The notes below the pieces were generated by a model that had not been told where the DNA came from, did not search any database, and saw only the letters and a program-made list of their open reading frames with translations. From Cognatiluteimonas lumbrici (GTDB taxonomy: Bacteria; Pseudomonadota; Gammaproteobacteria; Xanthomonadales; Xanthomonadaceae): a stretch of DNA of 64,000 nt. The stretch covers positions 372,001 through 436,000 of the forward strand of contig NZ_ML636798.1 in NCBI RefSeq assembly GCF_006476065.1. The letters run 5' to 3'. The position numbers and the translations under genes are program-made. Shown in pieces: positions 4,211 through 21,061 of this stretch; position 1 is the stretch's first letter, and each line of letters begins with the position of its first letter.

Positions 4211-4241
4211 GTCGCTTCCGGCTGGGGCTACGGCACGAGGA

Positions 4242-4247
4242 TACAAT
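4242..4247 (+). promoter_or_regulatory. -10 element of icmF, leaderless-type
   Basis: TACAAT ends 6 nt before the icmF ATG, so transcription would start at or next to the start codon. No clear -35 and no strong Shine-Dalgarno are visible. Leaderless transcripts are common in Xanthomonadaceae. Start-site mapping would decide. Confidence 0.4.
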
Positions 4248-4253
4248 CGGGGG

Positions 4254-7200
4254 ATGAACACCGCAGCCTCCCAGCCAGCCACCCCGACGCAGCCGGACAC
4301 CGCGACCCCGCTGCGCTTCGTCACCGCCGCCAGCCTGTTCGACGGCCACGACGCCGCGATCAACATCATGCGCCGCCTGATCCAGGCCCAGGGCGCGGAA
4401 GTCATTCACCTCGGCCACAACCGCTCGGTCGAGGACGTGGTCCGCGCCGCGCTGCAGGAGGACGCCGACGGCATCGCCCTGTCCAGCTACCAGGGCGGGC
4501 ACGTCGAGTACCTCAAGTACATGGTGGACATGCTGCGCGAGCGCGGCGCCGGGCACATCAAGGTGTTCGCCGGCGGCGGCGGCACCATCACCCCGGAGGA
4601 GATCCGGGAGCTCGAGGCCTACGGCGTCGAGCGCATCTACCACCCCAACGACGGCATGCACATGGGGCTGGTGGCGATGATCGAGGATGTGGTCAGGCGC
4701 GCCGAGGAGGCCCGACAGCCGGTCGAGACCCCGCACAAAGTCGAGCTGACCGACGAGGCCGAGATCGGCAAGATGCTCTCGGCGATCGAGGAGGGCGCGC
4801 TCGACGACGCCGAGATGGCGAAACTGCGCAAGCAGTGGCAGCTCGCCAGCGGCAAGACCCCGGTGATCGGCATCACCGGGACCGGCGGCGCCGGCAAGAG
4901 TTCGGTCACCGACGAGCTGCTCAACCGCTTCCTGGCCAACTTCCCGGAGATGCGCATCGCCGTGGTCTCGGTGGACCCGACCCGCCGCCGCACCGGCGGC
5001 GCGCTGCTGGGCGACCGCATCCGCATGAACTCGTTGCGCTCCAAGCGCGTCTTCATGCGCTCGATGGCGACCCGCCGCCAGCACGCGGCCACCAACGTGG
5101 TGCTGCAGGACTGCATCGGCTTCCTCAAGTCGCTGGGCTACGACCTGGTGATCGTCGAGACCGCCGGCATCGGCCAGAGCGACTCGGAGATCGTGGATCT
5201 GGTCGACTTCCCGATGTACGTCATGACCAGCGACTTCGGCGCCCCGAGCCAGCTCGAGAAGATCGACATGCTCGACTTCGCCGAGCTGATCGTGCTCAAC
5301 AAGTTCGACAAGCGCGGCGCCGAGGACGCGCTGCGCGACGTGCGCAAGCAGTGGAAGCGGAACCACGTGCAGTTCAAGGTCGCCGACGAGGACGTGCCGG
5401 TCTACCCGACGATCGCCAGCCAGTTCAACGACCCCGGCATCACCTGGATGTTCGCCAACCTGTGCCGGTTGATGCGGGAAAAGCAGGGAACGGGGAACGG
5501 GGAACGGGGAACGGTGGGGTGCGACTGGAACCCGAAGGTCGACACCACGCTCAAGGAGCCGCGCGCGACCGTGCTGATCCCGGGCAGCCGCGTGCGCTAC
5601 CTGGCCGAAATCGCCGAGCAGGGCCGCGCCATCAACCAGCGCATCGAGACCCAGGCCGAGATCGCCGACCGCGCCCAGTCCCTGTGGCAGAGCCTGCAGG
5701 AACTCGAGGACGGCAAGCTGCCGAAGGCGCTCGGCCTGTACGAGGGCGGCGCGCTGACCGAAGGCGGCGACAAGAGCCTCCTAACCCTCCGCCAACGGTA
5801 CAACGACGCCATCCAGTCCCTCGACAGCGAAGCCCTCAAGCTCCTGCGCGAGTGGCCGCAGCGCCTGGAGTCGATCACCGCCGAGGTCAACGAGTACCAG
5901 GTCCGCGGCAAGACCATCCGCGTGGACAACTACCGCGAATCGCTGAGCCACCTGCAGATCCCGAAGATCGCCGCGCCCACCTACAAGTCCTGGGGCGAGC
6001 TGCTGACGTTCCTGCAGAAGGAGAACCTGCCGGGCGCGTATCCGTACACCGGCGGCGTGTACCCGTACCGCCGCACCGGCGAGGACCCGATCCGCATGTT
6101 CGCGGGCGAGGGCACGCCCGAGCGCACCAACCGCCGCTTCCACTACCTGAGCCTGGGCCAGCCGGCCGCGCGCCTGTCCACCGCCTTCGACAGCGTCACC
6201 CTGTACGGCGAGGACCCGGCCACGCGCCCGGACATCTACGGCAAGATCGGCAACTCCGGCGTCAACATCGCGACCCTGGACGACATGAAGAAGCTGTACT
6301 CCGGCTTCGACCTGTGCGCGCCGACCACCAGCGTCTCGATGACCATCAACGGCCCGGCGCCGATGATCCTGGCGATGTTCATGAACACCGCCATCGACCA
6401 GCAGGTGGAGAAGTACCTGCGCGAGGACCAGCAGCGCTGGGATGCCGCGTCGGCGAAGATCGACAAGCTGTTCGCGGGCCGCGAGCGGCCGCAGTACAGC
6501 GGCATGCTGCCCGAGGGCAACGACGGCCTCGGCCTGGGCCTCCTCGGCGTCACCGGCGACCAGCTGGTCGAGCCCGAGGTCTACGAACGCATCAAGGCGC
6601 AGACGCTCAGGACCGTGCGCGGCACGGTCCAGGCCGACATCCTCAAGGAGGACCAGGCCCAGAACACCTGCATCTTCAGCACCGAGTTCGCGCTGCGGAT
6701 GATGGGCGACATCCAGCAGTACTTCGTGGACAACGAGGTCCGCAACTTCTACTCGGTGTCCATCTCCGGGTACCACATCGCCGAGGCCGGGGCGAACCCG
6801 ATCTCGCAGCTCGCCTTCACCCTCTCCAACGGCTTCACCATCGTCGAGTACTACCTCGCGCGCGGGATGAAGATCGACGACTTCGCGCCCAACCTGTCGT
6901 TCTTCTTCAGCAACGGAATGGATCCGGAGTACACCGTCATCGGCCGCGTCGCCCGCCGCATCTGGGCGCGCGCCATGCGCGAGCGCTACGGCGCCAGCGC
7001 CCGCAGCCAGATGATGAAGTACCACATCCAGACCAGCGGCCGCTCCCTGCACGCGCAGGAGATCCAGTTCAACGACATCCGCACCACGCTGCAGGCCCTG
7101 TACGCGCTGTTCGACAACTGCAACAGCCTGCACACCAACGCCTACGACGAGGCCATCACCACGCCGACCGAGGAAAGCGTCCGCCGCGCCGTGGCGATCC

Positions 7201-7772
7201 AGATGATCATCAACAAGGAGCTGGGGCTGAACTACTGCGAGAACCCGTGGCAGGGCAGCTTCATCGTGGACAAGCTGACCGACATGGTCGAAGAGGCCGT
7301 GTACCGCGAGTTCGAGGCCATCAGCGACCGCGGCGGCGTGCTCGGCGCCATGGACACCATGTACCAGCGCGGCAAGATCCAGGAGGAGAGCCTCTACTAC
7401 GAGCACAAGAAGCACGACGGCTCGCTGCCCCTGGTCGGCGTCAACACTTTCCTGCCCAAGGAGCACGCCGGCGACATCGTCACCGAGATCGAGCTGATCC
7501 GCTCGACCCCGGAGGAGAAGGCCCAGCAGATCGCCAACGTAGAAGCGTTCCGGGAAACCAGGAACTCACTCTCCCCGCCAGCGGGGAGAGTCGGGGCCGC
7601 AGGCGCCGGTGAGGGGCAGCTCTTGGCGCAAGGCCTCCAGACCTTGCAGAAGACCGCCCGTGACCGCCAGAACGTCTTCGCCGCGTTGATGGAAGCAGTG
7701 AAGACCCACAGCCTGGGGCAGATCAGTCATTCGCTGTACGAAGTGGGTGGGGAGTATCGGCGGAATATGTAG
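4254..7772 (+). CDS. icmF: Fused isobutyryl-CoA mutase (B12-dependent, with built-in G-protein chaperone)
   Basis: The 1172-aa protein has the IcmF order: B12-binding domain with the base-off motif DGHD (about 30-33) and later [11 protein letters not shown]; a MeaB-like GTPase with P-loop GTGGAGKSS (about 208-217) and the downstream [10 protein letters not shown]; then the mutase barrel. IcmF interconverts isobutyryl-CoA and n-butyryl-CoA using adenosylcobalamin, and the GTPase loads and protects the cofactor. It is longer than usual members (about 1,090 aa) partly because of two repeat-derived inserts: [10 protein letters not shown] at about 411-420 and about 20 residues near 1103-1122. Both keep the frame open. 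A methylmalonyl-CoA mutase label is the common mis-annotation. Confidence 0.9.
5486..5513 (+). repeat. Four tandem copies of heptamer GGGAACG inside icmF
   Basis: Four perfect copies of GGGAACG lie head to tail at the linker between the GTPase and mutase domains. Similar GGGAACGG-type runs are familiar from xanthomonad intergenic DNA. The unit is not a multiple of 3, so gain or loss of one copy would shift the icmF frame. Confidence 0.95.
7565..7620 (+). repeat. Xanthomonad-type palindromic repeat within the icmF 3' end
   Basis: A perfect inverted repeat CTCTCCCCGC / GCGGGGAGAG (7569-7590, 2-nt loop) is followed by TCGGGG and then GTGAGGGGC, the layout of the small dispersed palindromic element common between genes in Xanthomonadaceae. 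Here it is read in frame and adds a Ser/Pro/Gly/Ala-rich peptide near the C-terminus of IcmF. Confidence 0.75.
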
Positions 7773-7835
7773 TCGAAGGCATTGCGACGAGGTTTGCAAG
7801 GGGGCAGTTCGTAATTGGGCCATCGGGGAGAGGCC

Positions 7836-9065
7836 ATGAGGAAGAAGAACGTAAAAGGGAAAGTCATTTCCCTGCTGACCCGAGAAGCGCTCCTCAAGCG
7901 CAAGATCAGGCGGCATCTAACGCGCGTCGGCTTTAAACGCGACGACGATGGAGTGCTATATCTTCCTGCTGACAGCAAGGAGGCGATTCGGGCGGCACAT
8001 CAGATGCAAAGGTCGGAACGATCCTCCAAACAGTCCGATTTCTTAAAGTCCCGATTCCCTCGTCTTTCAGAGCACTTCGCCACAGGTGGCGAGATTCATC
8101 CTGAAAGGGTCAGGCCACGCTTGGAGCGTGTGCGCAGCGGAACTTGGCAAGCGGAGCTGTTTAAGCTGGCCTCCTTGACTTGGTCGGTGCCGGTGTCGCC
8201 TGGATTCGGTCGGCGTCTCCGCTATTTGGTGTGGGACGACGATAATCAGCGTTTGATGGGCATCCTTGCAATTGGCGACCCGGTTTTCAATCTTCGATCC
8301 AGAGACGACTACATCGGTTGGACTGGTGGGCAGCGACGTTCGCAGTTAGTACACATCATGGACGCCTATGTGCTTGGTGCGGTGCCGCCGTACAACCAGT
8401 TGCTTGGCGGTAAGGTGGTTGCTTCGCTGTTGCGCACTAAAGAGATTTTCGACGACTTCAGAGTCTCCTATGGGGATCGCGAAGGAATTATCTCTGGAGA
8501 AATCAAGCAGGCCCGCCTAGCAGCGATTACCACGACGTCATCAATGGGCAGGTCGTCGGTTTATAACCGCGTTAAGTTGGGCGACGAGTTCTACCTCAGG
8601 CCCATTGGATACTCGAGCGGTTACGGCCATTTCCACATTCCTGACAAGCTATTCCAAGATTTGCGCAGCTATCTTCGCGAGAAAAAGCACAGCTATGCGG
8701 ACGATCACGCCTTTGGCGAAGGGCCGAATTGGCGAATGCGTGTAACGCGCACGGCGTTTGAACTTATCGGCATGCGGCCAAGCCTAATGATGCACGGCGT
8801 CAAGCGTGAAGTGTTCATCTGTGAAATGGCTACCAACACGATCGAGTTCTTGAAGGGCGAGGATGCGCAACTTGATGTCAGTAACCTCAAAACGGTTGAC
8901 GAAGTTGGAGCTCTAGCATGTGAACGATGGTTGATACCACGCGCCAAGCGCCAGACCGGGTATCAGCAGTGGACCAGACAAGATCTCATTGACCTGGTGT
9001 CGAAGTCGTCGGGCGTGCGCGTATCTCTTATCCTGCCGAAAAAAAGGACGCGGGCAAGACGCTAG
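7836..9065 (+). CDS. druA: Druantia protein DruA (DUF4338)
   Basis: The 409-aa protein carries the DUF4338 core: YLVWDDDNQRLMGILAIGDP, then RSRDDYIGWT, LVHIMDAYVLGAVPPY and LLGGKVVASLL (about residues 129-200). DUF4338 defines DruA of type I Druantia anti-phage systems; its biochemical activity is not established. The ATG at 7836 has GGGGAGAGG just upstream; an in-frame TTG at 7815 is less likely. It begins 63 nt after icmF and its stop overlaps or abuts the next start (TAGTGATG), so the four genes form one unit. Base composition is visibly less G+C-rich than the flanks, pointing to horizontal transfer. The basic N-terminus may contact nucleic acid (inference). Confidence 0.85.
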   Translation: MRKKNVKGKVISLLTREALLKRKIRRHLTRVGFKRDDDGVLYLPADSKEAIRAAHQMQRSERSSKQSDFLKSRFPRLSEHFATGGEIHPERVRPRLERVRSGTWQAELFKLASLTWSVPVSPGFGRRLRYLVWDDDNQRLMGILAIGDPVFNLRSRDDYIGWTGGQRRSQLVHIMDAYVLGAVPPYNQLLGGKVVASLLRTKEIFDDFRVSYGDREGIISGEIKQARLAAITTTSSMGRSSVYNRVKLGDEFYLRPIGYSSGYGHFHIPDKLFQDLRSYLREKKHSYADDHAFGEGPNWRMRVTRTAFELIGMRPSLMMHGVKREVFICEMATNTIEFLKGEDAQLDVSNLKTVDEVGALACERWLIPRAKRQTGYQQWTRQDLIDLVSKSSGVRVSLILPKKRTRARR

Positions 9066-9067
9066 TG

Positions 9068-11860
9068 ATGCAACTGCCTGATCTGCAACGGGAACTCGAA
9101 GCGCGGTTTGGGCGGCTTGCTGGGGAGCGCGCGGACAAGCGACGCATTTTCGCGTTAGAACATGGGCTGCAGATTGATGTGTTGGAGCTGGCTGGCGAGT
9201 TGTCGAAACAGCTTCAGTACGGAAAGCCCAACAACGCATACTGGCTCGCTTGGGTCGTGTTCGCTACCGAAGTCGGATACAACTATGACGGCGCCGAGTA
9301 CTGGCAAACCTTCAAGGAGCGCTTGCCGGATTGGGGCGTTATCGATACCCCCAAGAACCGCACCCGGATCAGGGTTTGGTTTCGGCGCTTTGCCAATACA
9401 TATAACGGGGTACGGCCATCTGGCACTTGGGCGCGTCAGTTCCGCATCATTGCTTGGCCCATTACCCATGCCATCCTGCCTCAGGATTTGCAGTACCAGT
9501 TCGCCAAATCGCTGCACTCCAACCGGTATCAGATCGCCGCATATAGCGACCCGCTTGCTATCGGCCGGCAAATTCACCACTGCACCGCGAATGCTTCGTC
9601 GCGGTTTCGTGAGTTCTGTCAGCAGGAGGAGTTGGTTGGGCGAATTGCCTTAGCCCTGCTCGGTGGGGAAACCGAAGATCTGCCACTGTCGGCCGAAGCG
9701 ACCTTACGCATCGTTGGCGATCTCGGGTCGATGCAGGAAGCGCGGGAGTGGTTGGAAGAAGCTCGCTCGGATATCCGACGAATCCGCGGTGTGAGGAGGC
9801 AGCGTCAGGGCGAGCGGACGTCGCAGGGGCAGGTGTCGCACTCGCAAGCACGGTTCAACCTGCGCCCGTCGCTGTTGCTTAGTCAAGAAGGCGATGCGTG
9901 GCGAGTGGGCGTCCAGATGCCTTCCTTCGCGTCGTTGGCGGCCGCGTCCCCGGAAGTGAATAAGTACCTGCAGAAGACGAAGGTGCAATACGTAGGTGGT
10001 TCTGGCGATTGGCATCCCGCGCGTGTGCTGACCATACAGTCGAAGGTGCACGGCCTGCAGCAATGGCCCGTTGATGGCCAGGTCCTGAGATTCAAGGATG
10101 TATTCCCATCCTTTGAGGAATTGGTACGGCAGGAGGCGTCTCTCAGCCCAGGTCCGCTCTGGGTCTGTCGGATTGGCAACGACGGACTAGCCCGCGAAGT
10201 CCGTAGCCACCAAGTACGCCCGGGACAAAAATACATCGTACTAGGTAGGACGGGCTATGCGTTCCGAAAGAGCCCGGCCCTCCGGCCCATCGAGCTTCGA
10301 TGCGGGGGGCTGACCGGCATTCAACTTGCATTGCCTGAGCACGTGCCCGACGACTTGAAGCATGATCTCAAGTCACTCGACCTCTCTTTCACGTCGACCG
10401 TTAGGATCTGGCCAGCTGGGGTTCCTGCGGTGTCCTGGGATGGTGAGGGCCAAAGCGAGTGGCTCTCGACTGACAAACCTTGCTTCGGTATTGCTGTTGA
10501 CCACGACGTGGTCGCGCTAGACGTGATGCTCGACGGCGTCGCGGCCTTGAGGATTCCGCGGATAGGAGTGCGGGGTCCCTCATGGGTGCAATTGCCACCA
10601 TTGCCACCGGGCGAGCACCGGATGTCGATCGAAGTGAAGTACGACGTGAGGCAAGCTCGATCGCTTGGCGCTTCGCAAGGCGAAGTAATCTTGAACGTCC
10701 GGAATCCCTTAGGGCTGGAGGAGACAACTCAACAGCGCGGCGGCCTGATGGTGATCGTTACTCCCGCAGACGCGACGCTGGAGAACCTCGAACGCGGCGA
10801 CCTGCGACTCGAAGTGTTTGGTCCGGCGGGCCGAGAGGCTCAGTTGTTTCTGGAGGTCACTGGCTGCGAGACAGATCAAAGGGCGTTCGGCAAGGTGGTG
10901 CTTCCGGCGACGTTGAACGACTTATGGAACTTGCTGCCAGTCGAAACGAGAGAGGATCTCGGTGGCAGTTCTGCCTGTCGCCTCCTAGTAAGGGCGGACG
11001 AGATCGGTGTGTTCGCCCTGCCGCTGGAGCGCGAGAGCCGGCCCGTGCGATGGCAGCTGCGACGCTCGAAACATACCACCACGATCCGGCTGATCGACGA
11101 GGCGGGATTAGGTGTCAATGCGCAGTGCCAGATGGCATCACTGGATCAACCAACGGTCGCCCGCACATTAGAGTACGACGCCTGCATCGAGGGTATCGAA
11201 GTCCAGTCGCCGGGTGCCCTATTCGTTGTAGCCGGCCGGTGGCACCTCGATGCGGTCATCGTCAGTCAGCCGAGTCGAGACGGATTGCACGGTCTTTCCG
11301 AACTTGCTCCCGCCCCGCGGCTAGATGGCTTTGCGAGTTCGCCTGAGCGAATATCCGGCGACATCGCGTTGCAGACCTTGTGGATTCGCGCACGAGTCGT
11401 CGGCCCGCTTGGGGCAGCCAGGCAAGGTAGGGTGGTTCGCTCGATGCGCGACGCGCTTGCTCTTTTGGTGTGTGGCCCAGCATGGATGCAGGCCGAGCGT
11501 GCGTTCGAAAGTTCGACCAAAGACGAAGAGGCGATTGCTGCGCTGGGAGACGCGATTTCGATGCGCAAGGACTGGCAAAACTTTCCGGCCAAGTTGCGTA
11601 TGTCACACCGAGAAGTAATCGATACGGCGCCTAGTCAAGTTGTGCCATGGCTGCTGGCAATCAGCACTGGCTTCCGCTTGTGCACTGATCCGCATATCGT
11701 CGAGCGTGCCTTGCGATATCTGACTGACCCGAGCGGGTTCGTTGCTTCGTCGCGGAATGTTGCCGCGGATATCCGGATACTTTCGAAGCACAGCGAACTC
11801 GCCCGCGGAGCTCGCTACTTGCAGATTCTGCTGGGGGAAAAGTCGTGGGATTGGAGCTAA
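9068..11860 (+). CDS. Large Druantia-associated protein of unknown function (DruB/DruC position)
   Basis: This 930-aa protein has no catalytic motif I recognise. The N-terminal 200 residues look helical, with an aromatic segment (AYWLAWVVFATEVGYNYDGA) and a basic stretch after it. A charged helix with RRIRGVRRQRQ is near 235-245. The remainder appears beta-rich with several domains. Position between druA and the helicase-side genes equals that of DruB and DruC in type I Druantia, but here one long protein replaces the shorter ones. The start is either GTG 9065 (overlapping the druA stop) or ATG 9068. The last 16 nt overlap the next gene. Function in defence is inferred from context only. Confidence 0.65.
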   Translation: MQLPDLQRELEARFGRLAGERADKRRIFALEHGLQIDVLELAGELSKQLQYGKPNNAYWLAWVVFATEVGYNYDGAEYWQTFKERLPDWGVIDTPKNRTRIRVWFRRFANTYNGVRPSGTWARQFRIIAWPITHAILPQDLQYQFAKSLHSNRYQIAAYSDPLAIGRQIHHCTANASSRFREFCQQEELVGRIALALLGGETEDLPLSAEATLRIVGDLGSMQEAREWLEEARSDIRRIRGVRRQRQGERTSQGQVSHSQARFNLRPSLLLSQEGDAWRVGVQMPSFASLAAASPEVNKYLQKTKVQYVGGSGDWHPARVLTIQSKVHGLQQWPVDGQVLRFKDVFPSFEELVRQEASLSPGPLWVCRIGNDGLAREVRSHQVRPGQKYIVLGRTGYAFRKSPALRPIELRCGGLTGIQLALPEHVPDDLKHDLKSLDLSFTSTVRIWPAGVPAVSWDGEGQSEWLSTDKPCFGIAVDHDVVALDVMLDGVAALRIPRIGVRGPSWVQLPPLPPGEHRMSIEVKYDVRQARSLGASQGEVILNVRNPLGLEETTQQRGGLMVIVTPADATLENLERGDLRLEVFGPAGREAQLFLEVTGCETDQRAFGKVVLPATLNDLWNLLPVETREDLGGSSACRLLVRADEIGVFALPLERESRPVRWQLRRSKHTTTIRLIDEAGLGVNAQCQMASLDQPTVARTLEYDACIEGIEVQSPGALFVVAGRWHLDAVIVSQPSRDGLHGLSELAPAPRLDGFASSPERISGDIALQTLWIRARVVGPLGAARQGRVVRSMRDALALLVCGPAWMQAERAFESSTKDEEAIAALGDAISMRKDWQNFPAKLRMSHREVIDTAPSQVVPWLLAISTGFRLCTDPHIVERALRYLTDPSGFVASSRNVAADIRILSKHSELARGARYLQILLGEKSWDWS

Positions 11861-12930
11861 AGTCACTGACCAGTGGCGAATTGCTCGGTGTCGTTGCCCG
11901 ACAGCTGGGGCTGACCCACATCGATGGGGTGTCTGACGAGCTGTCATCGGCCCTCATTGCGGCCGTTCTGCGGCGCATCGCCGCCACTACGTGCCCTTGC
12001 CCGCGGGAGGTCTTCGTCGAAGGCGCCGTCGATGCGTTCACCGGTGTTGGCGAGACTGAGGCGACTAAGTTGCACGTACGCGAGGTGCTAGACAGTCTTG
12101 TAATCCTCGGAGATTTGCTCGAACTTGGCGGTTCGACCTCGCTGCCGGGCGTGGCAGCCGAAAATTGGCTCTATTGCGCCCCGCCTGCGTTCGTGGTTCG
12201 CGGGGAGACAGTGCTGTTGCTTGGCATCGAACCTGAAGATCAGGCGGCTCTGCCTGCGTCGCTTCGCGGCCAACTGGTTCGCCAGCGAGAGCTTCGTTAC
12301 CTGCGGAGGAAGGGCGACGACGGGATAGCAAAGCAACTGCGTGCGGCCGGCTACCTGGAGATCTCGAAAGCCGCGTGGACGCGCCTTCCACAGAATCAGA
12401 GCGCCAACACATTCTTTGAAGGGGTCGTCCGTCGCTTACGAGAGTCGGGGGGCCAAGGCGCGCTGGAAGGTCTCCAAGTGTATGGGGCCGCCGATGAGGC
12501 AAGGCCTTATACGTCGCGGCTGACCACGCCGGCAGGGCGCTCTGGTTATTACGTCGGACGGCGCCCGCAGGCCTTTGGATCGCCGATCTGGGTTTTCGTC
12601 GAACTCGACCGAGGCCGACCAGTCCAGTTTCTGGACTTGCCTTGGCGAGGCGGAAGGTTCCGTGGGTGCGACCATGGGTGGCGCATCCAGAGCGCTCTCG
12701 ATGTGCGAGCCGGAAAGCCCCAAACCTATCGCGTGGTGCCGCTGGAAGGTGATCTACATCGCTATGAATTTTTCTCACCTGTGCCGTTATGGGTCGAGCG
12801 TAAGCTCAGGATTGAGGGCGAGAAGGTGCGGGCCAACGGCGCGCTGTTCGCTTATGAACTTGACCGGCGCAGTGGTCACGGCATCGACGAATTAGTTCAG
12901 TCCTACATGTGGTTCACGCAGGCCGGTTAG
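11845..12930 (+). CDS. Druantia-associated 361-aa protein (DruD position)
   Basis: The product has no signal peptide or membrane segment. The first 110 residues are helical with conserved-looking cysteines (TTCPCPREVF), and the second half contains aromatic beta-like segments such as GSPIWVFVELDRGRPVQFLD. I do not recognise an enzyme motif. The GTG start at 11845 overlaps the end of the preceding gene by 16 nt, implying translational coupling, and the helicase gene follows after 8 nt. By order and size it occupies the place of DruD in type I Druantia; homology itself was not tested. Confidence 0.6.
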   Translation: MGLELKSLTSGELLGVVARQLGLTHIDGVSDELSSALIAAVLRRIAATTCPCPREVFVEGAVDAFTGVGETEATKLHVREVLDSLVILGDLLELGGSTSLPGVAAENWLYCAPPAFVVRGETVLLLGIEPEDQAALPASLRGQLVRQRELRYLRRKGDDGIAKQLRAAGYLEISKAAWTRLPQNQSANTFFEGVVRRLRESGGQGALEGLQVYGAADEARPYTSRLTTPAGRSGYYVGRRPQAFGSPIWVFVELDRGRPVQFLDLPWRGGRFRGCDHGWRIQSALDVRAGKPQTYRVVPLEGDLHRYEFFSPVPLWVERKLRIEGEKVRANGALFAYELDRRSGHGIDELVQSYMWFTQAG

Positions 12931-12938
12931 GGGGAAAG

Positions 12939-15900
12939 ATGTCCACGACGATCCAGCAGTCCGTTGCCGAACTCCATCAAGCGCTGACTGAGTACATCGA
13001 GGCGACCTACCACATCGGCGCGGCAGCGTTGGTCAAGGCACGCAAGCGTCTGTTGGACGAACCAGGCAACATCTATCAGGTTCCGTTTCTGGAGTCGACG
13101 CCGCGCTACGTCTCGGACCGCACATTCGCCCAGATTGAAGGTCTACCCGCGGCTGCGAGGCACTTGCTGACGACGCTCTCCGACGAGGCCTTGGGCAAGC
13201 GGTTGCTGCATAACCCGCCGTATTCCCACCAAGCCGAAGCGATCGAGGAAGCGATCGTGAATGGACGGAATCTCCTGATCATGACCGGAACAGGTTCAGG
13301 CAAGACTGAATCCTTTCTAATGCCGGTTCTATCGAAGTTGGCGATCGAAGCTAGTTCCAAGCCCGGTTCCTTCGGCAAGCCCGCGGTCCGGGCGCTGCTC
13401 CTCTATCCGATGAACGCCTTGGTCAATGACCAGCTCGGACGGCTCCGCTCAATGTTCAACGATGCGCGTGTCAGACGAGCGTTTCACGACTGGGGCGAGC
13501 GTATCCCGCGATTCGCACGCTACACCAGTCGCACACCTTATGCGGGCGTTCGCGAGAAAGGTAAGGACGACCGACGACTGAAATCGCTCGACGAGTTCTA
13601 TGTCAGGATAGAGCGCGAGGCGGGCGGTAATGACGAGGCTGCCGACCGCGCCCGGGCACTAATGCACCGATTACAGGCCAAGGGCAAATGGCCAGCTAAG
13701 GCCAGCCTCTCTAGATGGCTCGGTGCCCCGGGTTCACGTTGGCAGGACGGCCACACTGGCGCGTTCATTCGAGCAGTCACGCTTCCAGATGATAGTGAGC
13801 TGATCACGCGCCACGAAGTCCAAGCTGCGCCGCCAGATCTGCTTGTCACGAACTACTCGATGCTCGAGTACATGCTGATGCGCCCGATCGAGCGCTCGAT
13901 CTTCGACGCCACGAAATGTTGGCTCGAACAAAACCCGAGTGAAAAATTTTTGATTATTCTCGACGAAGCTCACCTTTACCGCGGCGCAGGAGGCGCGGAG
14001 GTCGGCTTGTTGATCCGCCGACTAACTGACCGCCTCGGAGTATCGTCGGACCGAATCCAGGCGATCTGCGCGACAGCCAGCTTCAGCGACCGCGACTACG
14101 CCAAAAAGTTCGGATCGCAGCTCAGCGGTTGCCCTGAGGAGACATTCAAGCCAGTCGAAGGCAAGCTGAAGAAGGGCGCGGAGGCGGCGACCGGAAGCCT
14201 AGCAGATGCCCAAGCGCTGGCGGCGGTCGATGTCGCGCGCCTGCATGAGGCCGACGACCCCCAGGAGCAAGCCGATCTCTTGGTCAGTTTCCTTGAGTAC
14301 CGTGGCGTGACGCCTTCGGGGTGCATCGACAAAGACCTTTATACCGCGCTGGAGACGTTCGGTCCGCTGCAATTGGTTGTCAACGAGACAATGGGCAGCG
14401 CGAAGCGTTTGGCGGAACTGCCTATGGAGGCTTTCCTAGGCGTTGAGACGGATCTGGCGGCGAAGGCGTTCTCCAACCTGCTGTCTCTTGGCAGCCTGGC
14501 CCGGTCGGCAGACGGTAATGGCCTGCTACCCTGCCGTGTCCATGGCTTTTTTCGTGGCTTGCCGGGTCTATGGATCTGCATGGACCCCGATTGCTCGGAA
14601 GTTGTGCCAGAGGAGAAGAATCTCTATTGCGGCAAGATGTACAGCCAACCGATCAAGCAATGCGGCTGCGGCGCTATGTGCCTGGAGTTCTACACCTGCC
14701 GTCACTGCGGTGCGCCTTACGCACGCGCATATACCGACAACGTTGAGGCACCACAGTCGCTCTGGCCCGAGCCAGGCGCGAATATCGCACTGAACGACAG
14801 AGAGGTGGAGCAGCTGGAGGCGCTGGATTTGTTGCTGCAGGCGCCACCTAAAGAAGACACCGTTGTGCCGGCCGAATACGACGTGGAGACTGGAAGACTC
14901 AACGCATACGACAGCGGGAATCGTTCTCGCATCGTATACCGCCGTCTCCTGAACACTAAGTCCCTGGGTGAGGAAGATGAGGATGGCGGACCGGGTACGC
15001 GTGGGCAGTTCATTCCTTGCGCCATCTGTCGCGGCCGCGCGGGCGGTGGAAAGTCCTCAGTGCAGGATCACATGACCAAGGGCGACCAACCTTTCCAGGC
15101 ACTTGTCGCGCGGCAGATTCAGATCCAACCGCCCGGCCCGAAGACCGATGACGACTTTGCGCCGCTACGCGGACGCAAGGTGCTGGCTTTCTCAGACTCG
15201 CGACAAGTCGCGGCGCGCCTTGCACCTAACCTCCAAACTTATTCCATGCGCGACGCGCTGCGGCCGCTTCTGGTTTGGGGCATGCAAAGGCTCCAGCAGT
15301 CTCCATCGTTAGCGAAGCGGATTAGCTTGCAGGACGCCTACTTCGCGACACTGCTGGCTGCGCGCTCTCTTTCAGTCCGGCTCCGTCCGGAACTTAAATC
15401 AGGCGAATCCTTCGACGCTTACTTCAAGATTGGCGCCCAAGTTGGCAGTGGCGGAATGATCGGCGAAGAGACGCTGATCGAGCTCTACGACGAGTTTCAC
15501 GAGGCCGAAGCACCCGACGCTATGCTCGAGGAATTGCTGAGTGTCATCCAAGACCGCTACATTGGCTTGGAAGCGATTGCACTGGGTTCGCTGACGGTGC
15601 GGCCAGGCAAGAAAAGAAGCGACTTGCTCCAGAAGTTGCCCGACATAGTTGGATTCGCCACGACCGAAGAGTCCAAGCTATCACTGGTAAGTTACTGGCT
15701 GCGGTGCTGGCGCAAGAAGGGTAGGAAGGGCCACATTTGGTTCCAAGGCATGGATGCCGACATGTGGCAGACCGAAGTACGTGGGCAAAATGGAAGGTTC
15801 AAGGCCATCGAGAAGATTCTTCCGAACAAGGCGGCTCAGACAATCTTCAGTGAGCGTTGGTTGCCCGCACTCCTCGATGAGTTCACTGAGAAGCTCGGTT

Positions 15901-18497
15901 CGACGTACCGACTGCACGCGAAAAAGCTTTACCTCGAACTCGGCGGAACATGGGTGCGTTGCAAGAGTTGTGCGTCCGTACATCGCCAAGTTGGGAATCA
16001 TGCGGGCTGCATCGACTGCGGTGAAGACCAGGTTGCCCAGATCGATCCATTCAGCGACCCGGTCTTCCGGGCCCGTAAGGGCTACTACCGCCGGGCAACT
16101 GAGGAAGTCCTGTCCGATGTCTCGAGGCGGCCGCTGGCGCTGATCGCGGCCGAGCATACGGCGCAACTGAACTCGTCCGACCAGGAAGAAGCTTTTTCGA
16201 AGGCCGAGCGCAACGAGTTGCTCTTTCAGGACATTAACATCGCCTGGGATGGGCAGAACGATGCGCAGGTCGCCATCGATATCTTGTCTAGCACGACGAC
16301 GATGGAGGTGGGCATCGACATTGGTGCGCTGTCGGGCGTCGCCCTGCGCAACATGCCGCCTGGCCGCGCGAACTACCAGCAGCGTGCCGGACGGGCCGGT
16401 CGTCGCGGCAATGCGGTAGCGACCGTCGTCGCCTTCGGTAGCGTCGACAGTCACGACGAGCACTACTTTTCGCACCCTGGAGAGATGATCTCAGGCAAGG
16501 TGATTGACCCCATACTGACTCTCGACAATCTCGACATCGCACGGCGCCACATCCGCGCCTTCTTGCTGCAGTGCTATCACCAAGCTCGTTTGCCGGAATT
16601 CGATCCAGAGCAACCCCACGACCTATTTTCGGTGCTAGGGAGGGTTGGTGCATTTCGAGATGGATCAGGCGTACTCAATCGCGATGACATGGCCGCCTGG
16701 ATAGCCGAGAACGAGGCTGCGCTAATGGGGCGTGTCGCGGAATGGCTTCCAGAGCAGCTGACGGCAGATGGTATCCGCGAATTGACTGTGGGTATGGCCA
16801 AGGATTGCATCGAGGAGATCGATAAGGCGATTGCGAGCCGTCGCAACCAGACGGTGGAGACGAAAGGCAACGGCAAGGGAAGTGAAGCGCCGGAGCAAGA
16901 TCCGGATGTCGAGAAGGAAAAGCCGCTTCGCACAGACAATGACAAGCTCCTAGACCGTCTTCTCTACGAGGGGGTGCTACCGCGGTATGCATTTCCTACG
17001 GACGTGGCAACCTTCCACATCTTCGACCGGGAGCGATCAACCCAGTTCCGGCACCGCGACGAGTATGCGCCTTCGCAGGGTTTGCCCGTGGCGCTATCGC
17101 AGTATGCGCCCGGCAAACAAGTATGGGTTGGGGGCAAGTGCTACGTCTCGGGCGCTATCTACTCCCGGTCCTGGCAAGAACGTGTCGCTGCCTGGGAGAA
17201 CCGCGAGCGCTACTACGAGTGTTCAATATGTCGCTTCGCCAAGACCGAACTCCGCGAACACGCATCGGACACGAGCAGCCAGTGTCCTGCGTGTGGAACG
17301 GTTGGGGCGTTTGAGTTCAAGGGTGAGTGGATGCGGCCGGTGGGGTTCGCACATCCTGTCGACTTCGAAGAGGAGACCTCACCGGATCGCGTCCCGGAAG
17401 TTAGCTACGCTACGCGGGCCAAATTAACCACAGAGACACCCGGAGAGGACGGGGAATGGGTCTCAGTCAGCCCACGATTCAAGGGGCTGCCGTTTCGGCG
17501 ACATCTTCTCGTATCGAACGTTGGACCAAAAGGCGAAGGCTATCGTTATTGCACCAGCTGCGGACGCATTGAGGCAATGAACGAGCCCCGCCCGGTGCTC
17601 ATTGGGCCCCATCGTCGTCCGTATCCTACTGATCCCGGACAGGAAACCTGCCGCGGTCGCAGCGTCGAAAACGTTGTGCTCGGTGCGAAATTCGTCACCG
17701 ACATCGCGCTGTTCTCCCTTCAGGTCGATGCGCCTATGAACTTGGCGCCGGGGAGTTACTCCAGCAACATAGCGTTACGTACTGTCAGCGAGGCGCTGGC
17801 GCGGGCGGCGACGAACATGCTGGGCATAGAGCCGGGTGAGATTCTCGCCGAGTTTCGGCCCGCCATGTCCCCAAATATGAATTCGGCGCTGTGCGCAGAG
17901 ATTTTCCTGTACGACACGCTCCCGGGTGGCGCCGGATTTTCCAGCGCCATTCCGGCCCGCGCCGAAGAATTACTGGGGAAGGCTCGCGACTTACTGGCCG
18001 GCTGCCCAGGAAAGTGCGATTCGTCTTGCTATCGCTGCCTGCGTGCCTTCGGCAACCGCATCGAGCATCGTTCACTTGATCGGCACGTTGGCATCGAGCT
18101 GATTGACTATCTGGTGACGGGAGTCGTGCCAAAAGCAGAAACTAGACGCCTCGAGAAATCTGCGAACTTACTGTTTAAGGACTTGTCTCGGCTCTTAGGA
18201 GGTTATCCTGGGGTCGATTGCCAGCGAAATGCCAAGATCATGGTCGCAGGCACCAAATATATGGCGCCGATTCTGTGCCGCCTCGAGTCTAAAGAGGCAT
18301 TGGTCGTCGTTAGCTTGAGTAGCGCCCTGAAGGAGGGATACGCAGCCGAAGCGGATGTGCGCGCATTGCAGGAGCAATGCGGTCACGTGGAAGTTGTCGT
18401 TGTCAACGAATTGCTGATCCGGTCGAACCTGCCAGCGGCGACGAAACTTGTGTACGAGAGGCTGCTCCGTGACCAAGACTCTCTAGCCACGACCTAA
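12939..18497 (+). CDS. druE: Druantia helicase DruE (DEAH helicase with DUF1998)
   Basis: This 1852-aa protein has superfamily-2 helicase motifs: Walker A TGTGSGKTES (about 115-124), DEAH box ILDEAHLYRG (about 340-349), and motif VI YQQRAGRAGRRG (about 1146-1157). Several CxxC/zinc-ribbon-like pairs lie between and after them (about 530-590, 1007-1032, 1426-1453, 1538). The C-terminal DUF1998 region ends with CPGKCDSSCYRCL near 1690. A DUF1998 helicase of this size is the hallmark of DruE in all Druantia types. ATG 12939 follows AGGGGG at a good distance; an in-frame GTG at 12909 is less likely. It probably translocates on DNA during anti-phage action. DISARM was considered, but there helicase and DUF1998 are normally separate proteins and a methylase is present. 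Confidence 0.85.
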   Translation: MSTTIQQSVAELHQALTEYIEATYHIGAAALVKARKRLLDEPGNIYQVPFLESTPRYVSDRTFAQIEGLPAAARHLLTTLSDEALGKRLLHNPPYSHQAEAIEEAIVNGRNLLIMTGTGSGKTESFLMPVLSKLAIEASSKPGSFGKPAVRALLLYPMNALVNDQLGRLRSMFNDARVRRAFHDWGERIPRFARYTSRTPYAGVREKGKDDRRLKSLDEFYVRIEREAGGNDEAADRARALMHRLQAKGKWPAKASLSRWLGAPGSRWQDGHTGAFIRAVTLPDDSELITRHEVQAAPPDLLVTNYSMLEYMLMRPIERSIFDATKCWLEQNPSEKFLIILDEAHLYRGAGGAEVGLLIRRLTDRLGVSSDRIQAICATASFSDRDYAKKFGSQLSGCPEETFKPVEGKLKKGAEAATGSLADAQALAAVDVARLHEADDPQEQADLLVSFLEYRGVTPSGCIDKDLYTALETFGPLQLVVNETMGSAKRLAELPMEAFLGVETDLAAKAFSNLLSLGSLARSADGNGLLPCRVHGFFRGLPGLWICMDPDCSEVVPEEKNLYCGKMYSQPIKQCGCGAMCLEFYTCRHCGAPYARAYTDNVEAPQSLWPEPGANIALNDREVEQLEALDLLLQAPPKEDTVVPAEYDVETGRLNAYDSGNRSRIVYRRLLNTKSLGEEDEDGGPGTRGQFIPCAICRGRAGGGKSSVQDHMTKGDQPFQALVARQIQIQPPGPKTDDDFAPLRGRKVLAFSDSRQVAARLAPNLQTYSMRDALRPLLVWGMQRLQQSPSLAKRISLQDAYFATLLAARSLSVRLRPELKSGESFDAYFKIGAQVGSGGMIGEETLIELYDEFHEAEAPDAMLEELLSVIQDRYIGLEAIALGSLTVRPGKKRSDLLQKLPDIVGFATTEESKLSLVSYWLRCWRKKGRKGHIWFQGMDADMWQTEVRGQNGRFKAIEKILPNKAAQTIFSERWLPALLDEFTEKLGSTYRLHAKKLYLELGGTWVRCKSCASVHRQVGNHAGCIDCGEDQVAQIDPFSDPVFRARKGYYRRATEEVLSDVSRRPLALIAAEHTAQLNSSDQEEAFSKAERNELLFQDINIAWDGQNDAQVAIDILSSTTTMEVGIDIGALSGVALRNMPPGRANYQQRAGRAGRRGNAVATVVAFGSVDSHDEHYFSHPGEMISGKVIDPILTLDNLDIARRHIRAFLLQCYHQARLPEFDPEQPHDLFSVLGRVGAFRDGSGVLNRDDMAAWIAENEAALMGRVAEWLPEQLTADGIRELTVGMAKDCIEEIDKAIASRRNQTVETKGNGKGSEAPEQDPDVEKEKPLRTDNDKLLDRLLYEGVLPRYAFPTDVATFHIFDRERSTQFRHRDEYAPSQGLPVALSQYAPGKQVWVGGKCYVSGAIYSRSWQERVAAWENRERYYECSICRFAKTELREHASDTSSQCPACGTVGAFEFKGEWMRPVGFAHPVDFEEETSPDRVPEVSYATRAKLTTETPGEDGEWVSVSPRFKGLPFRRHLLVSNVGPKGEGYRYCTSCGRIEAMNEPRPVLIGPHRRPYPTDPGQETCRGRSVENVVLGAKFVTDIALFSLQVDAPMNLAPGSYSSNIALRTVSEALARAATNMLGIEPGEILAEFRPAMSPNMNSALCAEIFLYDTLPGGAGFSSAIPARAEELLGKARDLLAGCPGKCDSSCYRCLRAFGNRIEHRSLDRHVGIELIDYLVTGVVPKAETRRLEKSANLLFKDLSRLLGGYPGVDCQRNAKIMVAGTKYMAPILCRLESKEALVVVSLSSALKEGYAAEADVRALQEQCGHVEVVVVNELLIRSNLPAATKLVYERLLRDQDSLATT

Positions 18498-18765
18498 GCG
18501 ATGAAACTCGTTTAGGACGCTAGGTTTAGGGACCGCATGGCACCAGGGGGGGGCGACTGCAGCACGATGGTGGTTGCGCAGCCATAGGGTGGCTGGGGGC
18601 CATTGCGGCAGAGTCTGGGATGGCCGTGAGGTCTAGAGGATACGCAACACGGATTGAGAGCGGCACGACCAACCTGTTGCGGTGCACAAGGGTATGGCAC
18701 TACGGTGAATTGCAGCGGTAAGTCCCTCCGCTTATCGTTCGCCAACGCCTCCGAGGCTACCTGCC
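18498..18765. other. Intergenic right edge of the defence island
   Basis: 268 nt without a supportable gene. It contains a run of eight G (18546-18553), no tRNA, and no recognisable integrase site. It is the transition from lower to higher G+C. A weak sigma70-like pair, TTGCAG at 18710 and TTATCG at 18732 (16-nt spacer), could serve the amidohydrolase gene. Confidence 0.4.
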
Positions 18766-19689
18766 ATGCGCCTTCCCGCCGTGCTGTTCCTCGCCTCGCT
18801 GAGTCTGCTAGCGGCTTCGGCCCCAGCAGCCGCCCAGCCGTACTCCGGCCCGATCATCGACGTCCACATGCATGTCGGCCCAGCCGCGCCCGGAGCACCG
18901 AACCCCGCCACGGGCCAACCCACCACCGCCAACACCGACGCCGACCGCGAGCGCCTGACGCTGGAGCGGATGCGCCGGCACGGCATCGTCCTTGGGTTGG
19001 TCAGCGGCCCGGATGCGGCCATGGCCAGTATGCGCAAGGCCGGTGGCGGGGACAGGATCTGGGCCGGCGCCTTCCTCGACGACGGGCGTACTCCGTTGCC
19101 GCCCGCCGAGGTCTTGCGGGAGGCGTTCGCGAACGGCGACCTCAAGGTGATGGGCGAGATCGGGGCGCAGTACCACGGCCTCGACCCGAGCGACGAGTGG
19201 TTCGAGCCCTACCTGGCGCTGGCCGAGGAGTTCGACATCCCGGTCGGCATCCACACCGGCCTGGCGCCCCCGGGCACGCCGTACGGCTGCTGCCCCGATT
19301 TCAGCGTGTCGCTCGGCAATCCCCTGCGGCTCGAGCCCATGCTCAAGCGGCACCCGAAGCTGCGGGTGTGGATGGCGCACGCCGGCTGGCCGTACCTGGA
19401 GGAGACCAAGGCGATCCTCTACATGTACCCGCAGGTGCACGCCGACCTCTCGGTGATCAACTGGATCATTCCGCGGCAGGAATTCCACGACTACCTGCAG
19501 GCGCTGGTCACCGCCGGCCTCGGCGACCGCCTGATGTTCGGTTCCGACCAGATGGTCTGGCCCGAGTCGATCACGCTCGCGATCGAGGGCGTGGACAGCG
19601 CCGTGTTCCTGACCCCGGAGCAGAAGCGGGCGATCTTCCACGACAACGCTGCGCGGTTCCTGCGGCTGGAGACCGCCGAGGGTCGTTGA
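18766..19689 (+). CDS. Exported amidohydrolase-family protein (TIM-barrel, Amidohydro_2 type)
   Basis: The 307-aa product begins with a Sec signal peptide ending near ASAPAAAQ. The mature part has the metal-site pattern of the amidohydrolase superfamily: HMHVG near residue 30, GIHTGLAPPG, MAHAGWPYLEE and the late GSDQMVW aspartate. The substrate is not evident; relatives hydrolyse or decarboxylate small aromatic or cyclic compounds. A GAGG Shine-Dalgarno sits upstream of the ATG. It is the first gene after the Druantia island and is followed at 31 nt by a sugar-dehydrogenase-like gene on the same strand. Confidence 0.75.
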   Translation: MRLPAVLFLASLSLLAASAPAAAQPYSGPIIDVHMHVGPAAPGAPNPATGQPTTANTDADRERLTLERMRRHGIVLGLVSGPDAAMASMRKAGGGDRIWAGAFLDDGRTPLPPAEVLREAFANGDLKVMGEIGAQYHGLDPSDEWFEPYLALAEEFDIPVGIHTGLAPPGTPYGCCPDFSVSLGNPLRLEPMLKRHPKLRVWMAHAGWPYLEETKAILYMYPQVHADLSVINWIIPRQEFHDYLQALVTAGLGDRLMFGSDQMVWPESITLAIEGVDSAVFLTPEQKRAIFHDNAARFLRLETAEGR

Positions 19690-19720
19690 CCCGCGGCAGT
19701 GCTGCGCTACCCTGCGTCGG

Positions 19721-21061
19721 GTGCGCGGCACCTTCTCCTTCCTTGCTGCCCGGGGCGTGGCGTCTTTCCGTTCGCTGGCGCTGATCGCGCTGTGCCTCGC
19801 GGTGCTGCCGAGCGCTGCGCGGGAGCGCTACGCCGTCCTGGATGGCGCCACCTGCGACGGTTACCCGCGTCTCACCATCGGCACCCTCCGCGGCATGTGC
19901 GCCGGGCTCGTCATCGGGCCGACGACGCAGGACCCCAAGCGCGTCCTGCATCTCCCGCGCTCGCTCCTGCAGCTCGACGCCGACACCTGGCTGGTGACCG
20001 ACCTCGGCGCCTGGGAGGGCAGGCCGGGCAAGGTCTGGCGGCTGCGCGCGCCGCGTGGGCAGGCACCCTCGGTCGAGCGCCTGCTCGACGGCCTGCACCT
20101 GCCGCACGCGATCGCCCGCGGCCCGGACGGCCTGGTCTACATCGGCGAGATGAACCGGATCGTGCGCTTCGATCCCGGTGCCGCGTTCCCGGCCGATACG
20201 CTGGAAACCGTGGTCGACGGCCTGCCGGGCAACCGGTTGCACGCCAACCGGCATCCGCTGTCGCGCTTCGTGTTCCTGCCCGGCGGCGACTTGCTGGTCA
20301 ACGTCGGAGCGCCCAGCGACCAGTGCGACGGTGAGGGCGCGCGCACGGAGGACGCACTGTGCGCGGAGAGCGAGGGCGCGGCGGACGCGGCCTCGCTGCG
20401 GCGCTATCCCTACCTCGGCGAGGGCCGCTGGTCACGGGAGTACACAGTGGAGGCCCGCGGCCTGCGCAACTCGCTGGCGCTGGCCGTGCACGCGTCGGGG
20501 ACCGTGCTGCAGGCCGAGAACAGCTACGACTTCGACAGCCGCTGGCACCCGTACGAGGAGCTCAACGTGATCGCGCCCGGCCGCCACTTCGGCTGGCCGT
20601 ACTGCACGGCCACAGGCGCGGCCACGCCGGCCTGGCCCGACCGCGCGACGTGGTGCGGGTCCGAAGCGCACGCCAAGCCGGACCTGCTGCTGCCGCCGCA
20701 CACCGCGCCGCTGGACATGCTCTGGTACGAGGGCGCGATGTTCCCCGCGCTGCGCGGCCGGCTGCTGATGAGCTGGCACGGCTACCGCTCGGTCGGCGGC
20801 CGCATCGCCAGCTTCGCGGTTGACGCGCGTGGCGTCCCCATCCCGGACCGCAATCCGCGCTTCCCGGGCTACGGCCTTGGCTGGCGCAGCTATGGCGCGG
20901 GTCCGGCTGCGACGCCGGTCGTGCTGACGCCGGGCTGGGGCAAGCGCGCCGGCGAACAGCCGCAGGGCTCGCCGGTCGGCCTCACGGTCGCCGACGACGG
21001 CGCGATCTGGGTCGCCGACGACCGCGCCAGCGCGATCATCCGGTTTGCCGCGGAGAAGTAG
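19721..21061 (+). CDS. Exported PQQ-type sugar/sorbosone dehydrogenase-like beta-propeller
   Basis: The 446-aa protein starts at GTG 19721 with an N-terminal signal sequence (RSLALIALCLAVLPSAAR). The body shows six-bladed propeller repeats as in the GSDH family: LPHAIARGPDGLVYIGEMNR, VFLPGGDLLVNVGAPSDQC, a GLRNSLALAVH segment and APGRHFGWPYC. Relatives oxidise aldoses or sorbosone with PQQ in the periplasm; the substrate here is unknown. The cysteines suggest disulfides. It follows the amidohydrolase closely and may be co-transcribed. Confidence 0.7.
   Translation: MRGTFSFLAARGVASFRSLALIALCLAVLPSAARERYAVLDGATCDGYPRLTIGTLRGMCAGLVIGPTTQDPKRVLHLPRSLLQLDADTWLVTDLGAWEGRPGKVWRLRAPRGQAPSVERLLDGLHLPHAIARGPDGLVYIGEMNRIVRFDPGAAFPADTLETVVDGLPGNRLHANRHPLSRFVFLPGGDLLVNVGAPSDQCDGEGARTEDALCAESEGAADAASLRRYPYLGEGRWSREYTVEARGLRNSLALAVHASGTVLQAENSYDFDSRWHPYEELNVIAPGRHFGWPYCTATGAATPAWPDRATWCGSEAHAKPDLLLPPHTAPLDMLWYEGAMFPALRGRLLMSWHGYRSVGGRIASFAVDARGVPIPDRNPRFPGYGLGWRSYGAGPAATPVVLTPGWGKRAGEQPQGSPVGLTVADDGAIWVADDRASAIIRFAAEK

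What the first reader, a model, noticed from the sequence alone, without database searches (positions are those of the whole stretch)
7836..18497. Four-gene Druantia-like defence operon with a non-standard subunit set
Seen: a DUF4338 protein first, a giant DEAH helicase with DUF1998 last, and between them one 930-aa and one 361-aa protein, all coupled by overlaps or gaps of 8 nt or less. Known: type I Druantia is DruA-B-C-D-E; type II has DruM-F-G-E with a methylase; type III has DruH-E. Inference: this locus has the type I ends but only two middle genes, so it is a divergent type I with a fused or replaced B/C, or a distinct subtype.
Basis: partly seen in the sequence, partly recalled or inferred. 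Interest (0 to 1): 0.85.

Follow-up and report, generated by a model that had tools for sequence, protein, structure and literature searches.

The report
Four-gene variant of Druantia phage defence
This is an intact four-gene relative of the Druantia type I phage-defence system, in which one large uncharacterised protein stands where the known system has two others, and the same arrangement recurs across several bacterial phyla.

Summary
Four intact, overlapping or nearly abutting genes lie at 7836-18497: druA (PADLOC DruA1, 608 bits), a 930-aa protein X, druD (DruD1, 297 bits) and druE (DruE1, 1935 bits; next family 641). X matches nothing in PADLOC, Pfam or NCBIfam. No sign of a DruB-DruC fusion: a true five-gene locus (P. 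putida pKF715A) has DruB and DruC with no detectable relation to X. The layout is not peculiar to this locus: of 80 DruE1 loci chosen by likeness, 73 hold X (850+ aa) directly before druD-druE, and 35 of 90 loci examined have the A-X-D-E order. On a DruE tree the X loci form one group apart from the loci without X, while DruA is shared between them. X is predicted to be a helical head, a beta region with Ig-like sandwiches and a helical tail. DruA is predicted to have a GNAT fold; phage Mu Mom, a DNA-modifying enzyme, is the top structural match but tied with other GNATs. Best reading: a four-component, Druantia type I-like system in which X replaces DruB-DruC as sensor/recognition subunit for the DruE helicase. 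New variant of a known kind; function and mechanism untested.

The parts
7836..9065 (+). druA: DUF4338 protein, 409 aa, predicted GNAT fold over about residues 88-352
   Evidence: PADLOC DruA1 608.5 bits; PF14236 280 bits; AlphaFold model pLDDT 82.4; GNAT acetyltransferases dominate the structural matches
9068..11860 (+). X: 930-aa protein in the place of druB-druC. Model: helical head ~1-248, beta region ~265-440, Ig-like sandwiches ~443-740, helical tail ~744-922
   Evidence: No PADLOC/Pfam/NCBIfam match at E<=1; matches in 7 of 299 genomes of the order, the own genome included and one weak; 850 aa or longer in 73 of 80 DruE1 loci; model pLDDT 86.1, pTM 0.64
11845..12930 (+). druD, 361 aa
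   Evidence: PADLOC DruD1 PDLC00010 297 bits; hhalign of the X-lineage DruD profile with pKF715A DruD 79% probability, E 1.6e-5, but none with the L144 DruD (0.1%)
12939..18497 (+). druE: giant SF2 (YprA-like) helicase with Zn-binding MZB/DUF1998 domain (GTG start at 12909 also possible)
   Evidence: PADLOC DruE1 1934.8 bits; DEAD, Helicase_C and MZB domains; Walker A, DEAH and eight CxxC pairs

Best explanation
An intact, probably horizontally acquired four-component antiphage operon of the Druantia type I-like (DruE1) family in which a modular protein X replaces DruB and DruC. Proposed working (inferred): DruE, a YprA-like helicase, is the DNA-engaging motor that disrupts phage DNA metabolism. 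X, with DruD, forms the recognition/activation subunit: its helical head, which holds most of its invariant residues, docks to a partner or DNA, and its Ig-like array and helical tail bind the target or assemble the complex. DruA is a GNAT-fold enzyme that has moved between lineages, acting as a separable modifying or licensing enzyme, possibly on DNA. Shown here: gene content, family membership of A, D and E, the grouping and spread of the X lineage, predicted folds. Inferred: every step of action.
For: HMM identity of A, D and E. X of 850+ aa directly before druD-druE in 73 of 80 DruE1 loci; in a set of 90 loci, 84 of the 88 with a scored druE hold X (two of them partial, at contig ends) and D, 35 of them with a short DruA directly upstream. 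In the order sample the 6 genomes with a strong DruD hit are the same 6 with a strong X hit. DruE tree: the 31 X rows are one side of a branch (SH-aLRT 99), the 3 rows without X (one true five-gene locus, two with other middle genes) another (99); DruA tree: the DruA of the five-gene locus nests among X-locus DruAs, beside that of N. watsonii (99/94). GNAT fold for DruA, in line with PMC10853773, which calls DUF4338 a GNAT domain (passage). DruE as helicase effector with a partner sensor is reported for type III (PMC13192584, passages; PMC13316683, passages).
Against: No phage assay is known to me for this operon or any X-type locus. One of the 80 loci (L066) has DruD and DruE but no X in its 20 kb, with a shortened DruD. 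X has no recognised enzymatic or DNA-binding domain; Ig-like sandwiches are generic and may only be structural. Type III findings may not carry over: that DruE carries C-terminal PLD nuclease domains, whereas type I/II DruE is said to have an inactivated Vsr domain (PMC12458937, passage), so no nuclease is apparent here. The DruE tree used quick mode, the rows without X are on long branches, and the tool warns that such joins may be false. A promoter scan found no sigma-70-like site.
Confidence: 0.6

Rival explanations
1. X is a highly diverged DruB-DruC fusion, so this is ordinary type I in disguise.
For: X sits where DruB-DruC sit; A and E are homologous and D remotely so. By eye X and DruB share a beta stretch ending in an (I/V)WP motif; in 40-shuffle tests pKF715A DruB scored above all shuffles in 2 of 3 slices of X.
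Against: No PADLOC DruB/DruC model matches X or 5 relatives; hhalign probabilities 0.6% and 0.1% against single DruB and DruC sequences, which is an underpowered test. In one search the two positional DruB counterparts of L143/L144 did not stand out (2-9 of 40 shuffles as good), and the best DruB alignments covered only 26-38 columns, away from the motif I had seen. The X model shows no long coiled coil, whereas DruC's weak SMC-like matches suggest one.
Confidence: 0.12
2. A modification-based system: DruA is a Mom-like enzyme that marks host DNA, and X-D-E attack or exclude DNA lacking the mark.
For: DruA's top structural match is phage Mu Mom (Z 10.1, rmsd 4.4, 182 aligned residues). [quoted passage not shown] the cited preprint not seen). 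Related YprA systems pair the helicase with a DNA-modifying enzyme (PMC12458937, section 5). In 36 of 88 loci DruA lies on the other strand from X-D-E.
Against: Twenty other GNAT rows lie within 1 Z unit of Mom, so the Mom match is not specific; no Foldseek hit reaches E 0.001 and Mom is not among its first 50; no DNA modification is known for DruA; 4 of 88 loci showed X-D-E with no DruA in reach, though each was cut short on one side.
Confidence: 0.25
3. The operon is a mobile-element or DNA-repair function, not phage defence.
For: YprA-family helicases include repair enzymes (PMC12458937, introduction); the locus sits at a point where relatives carry varied genes.
Against: DruE scores far above other families as DruE1, and DruA and DruD are Druantia subunits; type I Druantia is reported as antiphage (recalled, Doron et al. 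2018). Patchy spread and low G+C fit defence.
Confidence: 0.08

Closest known systems
Druantia type I (DruABCDE), example P. putida pKF715A (L162)
   Same: Gene order with DruA first and DruD-DruE last; DruA 54% identical; DruE in the same PADLOC family (31% identical); DruD remotely homologous
   Different: DruB (558 aa) and DruC (625 aa, weak SMC-like matches) absent; one 930-aa X with Ig-like sandwiches instead; DruE falls in a separate group of the tree
A-X-D-E locus of Nitrosococcus watsonii pNWAT01 (L008)
   Same: Same four genes in the same order; X 34% and DruE 53% identical over nearly the full length
   Different: No difference in gene content; annotated there as DruA, two hypothetical proteins and a DEAD/DEAH box helicase
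X-like locus with SNF2-type helicase and NERD protein (Leisingera L153)
   Same: Distant X relative, DruE-like helicase, a weak DruD match (22 bits) and an annotated DUF4338 protein
   Different: Extra SNF2-type helicase and NERD-UvrD protein, genes split over two strands; DruE on a sister branch. Paracoccus L154 has X-like and DruE-like frames too, but its other genes were not examined
Druantia type III (DruH-DruE)
   Same: Helicase DruE plus a large partner
   Different: No DruH model matches X; type III DruE has C-terminal PLD nuclease domains (PMC13192584, passage)

Membership tests
Druantia type I (DruABCDE) | DruA (DUF4338) | tested here: met
   PDLC00002 608.5 bits, PF14236 280 bits
Druantia type I (DruABCDE) | DruB | tested here: not met
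   Scan of X against all PADLOC models found none at E<=1; hhalign with pKF715A DruB 0.6%; no further gene in the operon
Druantia type I (DruABCDE) | DruC | tested here: not met
   Same scan; hhalign with pKF715A DruC 0.1%
Druantia type I (DruABCDE) | DruD | tested here: met
   PDLC00010 297 bits; remote relation to pKF715A DruD, 79% probability, E 1.6e-5; none seen to the L144 DruD, 0.1%
Druantia type I (DruABCDE) | DruE of the DruE1 family | tested here: met
   PDLC00013 1934.8 bits
Druantia type I (DruABCDE) | protection against phage | not testable with these tools
   needs a plating assay
Druantia types II, III and IV | DruM/DruF/DruG, DruH, or DruF/DruL | tested here: not met
   None of these models is listed for any of the four proteins; A, X and D were listed to E<=1, for E only the best 25 of 42 families were shown
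X lineage (A-X-D-E), proposed here | X directly before druD-druE and DruE in the X group of the tree | tested here: met
Mom-like DNA-modifying GNAT (DruA) | closer in structure to Mom than to other GNATs | tested here: inconclusive
   Mom Z 10.1, next GNATs 9.8-9.1 at ranks 2-21: tied

The most novel reading that the evidence does not exclude
Druantia type I-like systems are modification-based: DruA is a GNAT-fold DNA-modifying enzyme akin to Mu Mom that installs a non-methyl mark, and two alternative modules, DruB-DruC or X, read it for the DruE helicase. The A-X-D-E operon would be the simpler and widely spread form.
Probability: 0.2. Interest if true: 0.85.

Novelty: new variant of a known kind. 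Interest (0 to 1): 0.5.

Why it matters
Type I Druantia is described as five genes (PMC13316683, passage), and the PADLOC copy used here matched no model to X, so tools that require DruB and DruC would probably score these loci as incomplete (inference). The X lineage suggests that A, D and E form the shared core and that the middle can be replaced whole, which isolates what DruB-DruC (or X) must do. A GNAT-fold DruA that crosses between lineages gives a concrete, testable role for a subunit of unknown function.

Tried and rejected
Fused DruB-DruC: rejected as best reading. Sequencing error or broken five-gene locus: rejected, since G251 and others, 35 of 90 loci in all, have a short DruA directly before X-D-E. 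Chance neighbourhood: rejected by co-occurrence.

Dead ends: genome-contig scan with X alone found no relative; E. coli DNA searches no match; DruB1 model PDLC00004 in 99 genomes of the family and in 26 genomes of X loci, and DruC1 model PDLC00007 in 10 such genomes, gave nothing, but no control rang either; DruC1 PDLC00007 in 394 genomes around G496 gave 4 hits of at most 27 bits, whose surroundings showed no Druantia gene. The models that do match pKF715A (PDLC00005, PDLC00006) were not searched in genomes, so the frequency of true five-gene loci is not measured here. PDB sequence searches with X, its head and DruA gave nothing convincing. Among the first 50 rows of each list, fold searches with X returned Ig/FN3-like arrays and proteins that contain them, and phage structural proteins (best Z 9.4 over 93 residues); the head and tail were not folded or searched alone, so nothing is said on whether their folds are known. 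Promoter scan: 0 sites, shuffles average 3.3. Rfam: nothing at gathering scores. The repeat search at 7000-20000 listed no pair flanking the operon that looked like an insertion repeat. Supplements of PMC12458937 could not be opened, so X-type loci may be listed there.

Rows dropped: from the 73 long X, A3 left out L095, L104, L120 and L122 (the same contig as L053); A5 also left out L008; the head alignment A6 used 67 of the 76; the DruE tree used 31 X rows, the window included; DruA rows outside 380-480 aa were left out of the DruA tree. In some searches only up to two candidates per genome were scored.

Full report
What is there. The window carries four consecutive genes on the + strand with overlaps or gaps of a few bases. 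Their G+C is 56-60% in a chromosome stretch of about 69-74%. Against PADLOC, protein 1 is DruA1 (608 bits), protein 3 DruD1 (297 bits) and protein 4 DruE1 (1935 bits; next family DruE2, 641 bits); protein 2, here called X, matches nothing at E<=1. Pfam gives DruA, DEAD, Helicase_C and MZB domains and nothing for X; NCBIfam gives nothing for A, X and D. All four frames are open.

Is the layout unusual? In 299 genomes of the order (window's own included), X has a match in 7 (one weak, G199) and DruD in 7 (one weak, G033); the 6 strong ones coincide. In 369 genomes of the class only two have a DruE1 match over 1000 bits, this one and G512, and both have X (up to two candidates per genome were scored). 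An X profile finds X of at least 850 aa directly before druD-druE in 73 of these 80. Of the other seven, L083, L090 and L118 show partial X at a contig end, L056, L107 and L111 end before X would begin, and L066 lacks it in 20 kb, with a shortened DruD. Record titles name Proteobacteria, Acidobacteria, Actinomycetes, Bacteroidota, Chloroflexota, Gemmatimonadetes, Planctomycetes and others. In a set of 90 loci (the 80, four viral, six more), 35 have the short-type DruA directly upstream on the same strand (A to X at most 129 nt apart; in one, L103, 726 nt separate D and E), 29 a long-type (about 675 aa) DruA downstream on the opposite strand, 6 the long type upstream, 10 other places, 4 none in reach, 4 incomplete and 2 with no scored druE. 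The nearest relative, G251, has the same four genes at 66-79% identity. This sample was chosen by likeness to this DruE, so it does not say how common X is among all type I systems.

Comparison with the five-gene system. P. putida plasmid pKF715A carries DruA, DruB, DruC, DruD and DruE in order, each with its own PADLOC match (715, 762, 902, 523 and 2332 bits; I read DruD from an earlier start than annotated). Its DruA is 54% and its DruE 31% identical to those of the window. Its DruD is only remotely related (hhalign 79%, E 1.6e-5). DruB and DruC show no relation to X (hhalign 0.6% and 0.1%), though a single sequence against a profile is a weak test. I noticed by eye a beta stretch with an (I/V)WP motif shared by X and DruB; a shuffle test was mixed and aligned another stretch, so it stays a lead. 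Two IMG/VR contigs (L143, L144) have yet another set before DruE: 538- and 924-aa proteins and a third of 337-338 aa. In L144 the third is DruD1 by model PDLC00008 (69 bits) and the helicase DruE1 (1891 bits), while the 538-aa protein matches no PADLOC model and the 924-aa one only LmuB, weakly; these proteins match neither X nor, in hhalign, pKF715A DruB and DruC, and the L144 DruD does not match the window's DruD profile. The middle of type I-like systems is thus variable.

Trees. On a DruE tree of 41 rows the 31 X-locus DruEs are one side of a branch (SH-aLRT 99). The three rows without X, labelled BC in the script (pKF715A, a true DruB-DruC locus, and L143 and L144, which only have other middle genes), fall in another group together with the haloarchaeal L163 (99). 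DruEs of the X-like loci L153 and L154, with L142, are sister to the X group (98). The tree was built in quick mode, several branches are long, and the tool warns of false joins. On a DruA tree of 42 rows the pKF715A DruA lies within X-locus DruAs, next to N. watsonii (99/94). So DruA has probably moved between the two kinds; only one five-gene DruA was available.

Structure. X was modelled from 76 sequences at pLDDT 86.1, pTM 0.64: helical head, beta region, Ig-like sandwiches, helical tail. Listed matches are Ig/FN3-like arrays, proteins that contain them and phage structural proteins. Of the 23 invariant positions 17 lie in the head. DruA was modelled from 36 sequences at pLDDT 82.4; no Foldseek hit reaches E 0.001, but the best are mostly GNAT acetyltransferases, Mom not among the first 50. 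VIA-align gives phage Mu Mom first (Z 10.1, rmsd 4.4, 182 residues) with 20 further GNAT rows at 9.8-9.1, within the tie. PMC10853773 already calls DUF4338 a GNAT domain (passage). In the 36 DruAs an LLGGK-like segment (G192, K193 invariant) and a TTxS..GRSS.YN segment (T233, S235, S240, S241 invariant) are conserved; that the first is the CoA-binding motif is my inference.

How it may work. DruE has an intact Walker A and DEAH box and eight CxxC pairs. Type III work describes DruE as the DNA-acting effector and DruH as likely sensor (PMC13192584, passages), or DruH-DruE blocking phage DNA circularisation (PMC13316683, passages). By analogy X, with DruD, would sense infection or target DNA and activate DruE. 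Because type I DruE is reported to have an inactivated Vsr domain (PMC12458937, passage), cleavage may need a host nuclease, or the block may be helicase action alone. A review says a phage protein that promotes methylation of phage DNA helps evade type I Druantia (PMC12904381, passage; the cited preprint was not seen). That would fit a system that reads DNA modification, and a GNAT-fold DruA is a candidate for making a mark. None of this is tested.

Setting. The operon follows directly on the 3' end of a methylmalonyl-CoA-mutase-type gene with MeaB and B12-binding domains (window 4050-7772; the name icmF is recalled). The genus sample has 8 other genomes; I fetched the region from 7 (the eighth has only a 54-base match). 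In these 7, window DNA aligns up to the end of that gene and no further, apart from short repeats of its end, and the following frames differ by eye: a likely hot spot for gene uptake. A second, partial copy of the gene's end (142 nt and 110 nt) lies 0.3 kb on in G225 and 5 kb on in G1141; the repeat search listed none in the window. The right-hand border of the insert was not settled.

In print. Searches for Druantia (47 papers, 40 listed), DruA-DruD, DUF4338 with GNAT or acyltransferase, DUF4338, Druantia with GNAT, DruA with acetyltransferase, Druad1 and Druantia with DNA modification terms showed, in the listings and in the passages or sections I read of eight papers, no description of an A-X-D-E form. 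PMC12458937 mentions unappreciated diversity of types I and II (introduction), but its supplement was not readable here.

Verdict. Under a strict test this is not type I, since DruB and DruC were tested and not found. It is a member of the DruE1 (type I-like) Druantia family and of a distinct four-gene lineage in it.

Noticed in passing
window 7772 and loci L174-L180: The 3' end of the mutase gene before the operon looks like a hot spot: in 7 of 7 fetched congeners window DNA stops aligning there and other genes follow; L176 and L177 carry partial repeats (142 and 110 nt) of the gene's end further on.
   Followed up: partly
L153 11188-27919; also L011, L155, L010, L154: X-like proteins elsewhere: in L153 with an SNF2-type helicase, NERD-UvrD protein, DruE-like helicase and DUF4338; in L011 and L010 near split helicase, DUF1998, UvrD and NERD genes; L155 is similar but partly unannotated; L154 has X-like and DruE-like frames, other genes not examined. 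Possibly another undescribed Druantia/DISARM-like system.
   Followed up: partly
L050 3901-19380: Elaborate version: HATPase (MzaB-like), long-type DruA, X, DruD, a 248-aa protein, DruE and a PD-(D/E)XK/Cas4-like nuclease in one run.
   Followed up: no
L143, L144: Viral contigs with DruE1-like helicase and other middle genes (538 aa; 924 aa); in L144 the gene before druE is DruD1 by PADLOC.
   Followed up: partly
L138-L141: X-type systems on IMG/VR viral contigs, so perhaps carried by or near phage-like elements.
   Followed up: no
L009 8128-17394: Sinorhizobium medicae plasmid copy of the X-type system looks degraded: pieces of druE lie on either side of, and beside, an IS3 transposase gene.
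   Followed up: no
L163 4374-15415: Haloarchaeal plasmid with long-type DruA, 413-aa and 608-aa (weak DruD match) proteins and a DruE-like helicase.
   Followed up: no
window 7540-7650: The end of the mutase gene holds a stretch that does not align in one congener (L179) and is of varying length in others; it looks repeat-like.
   Followed up: no
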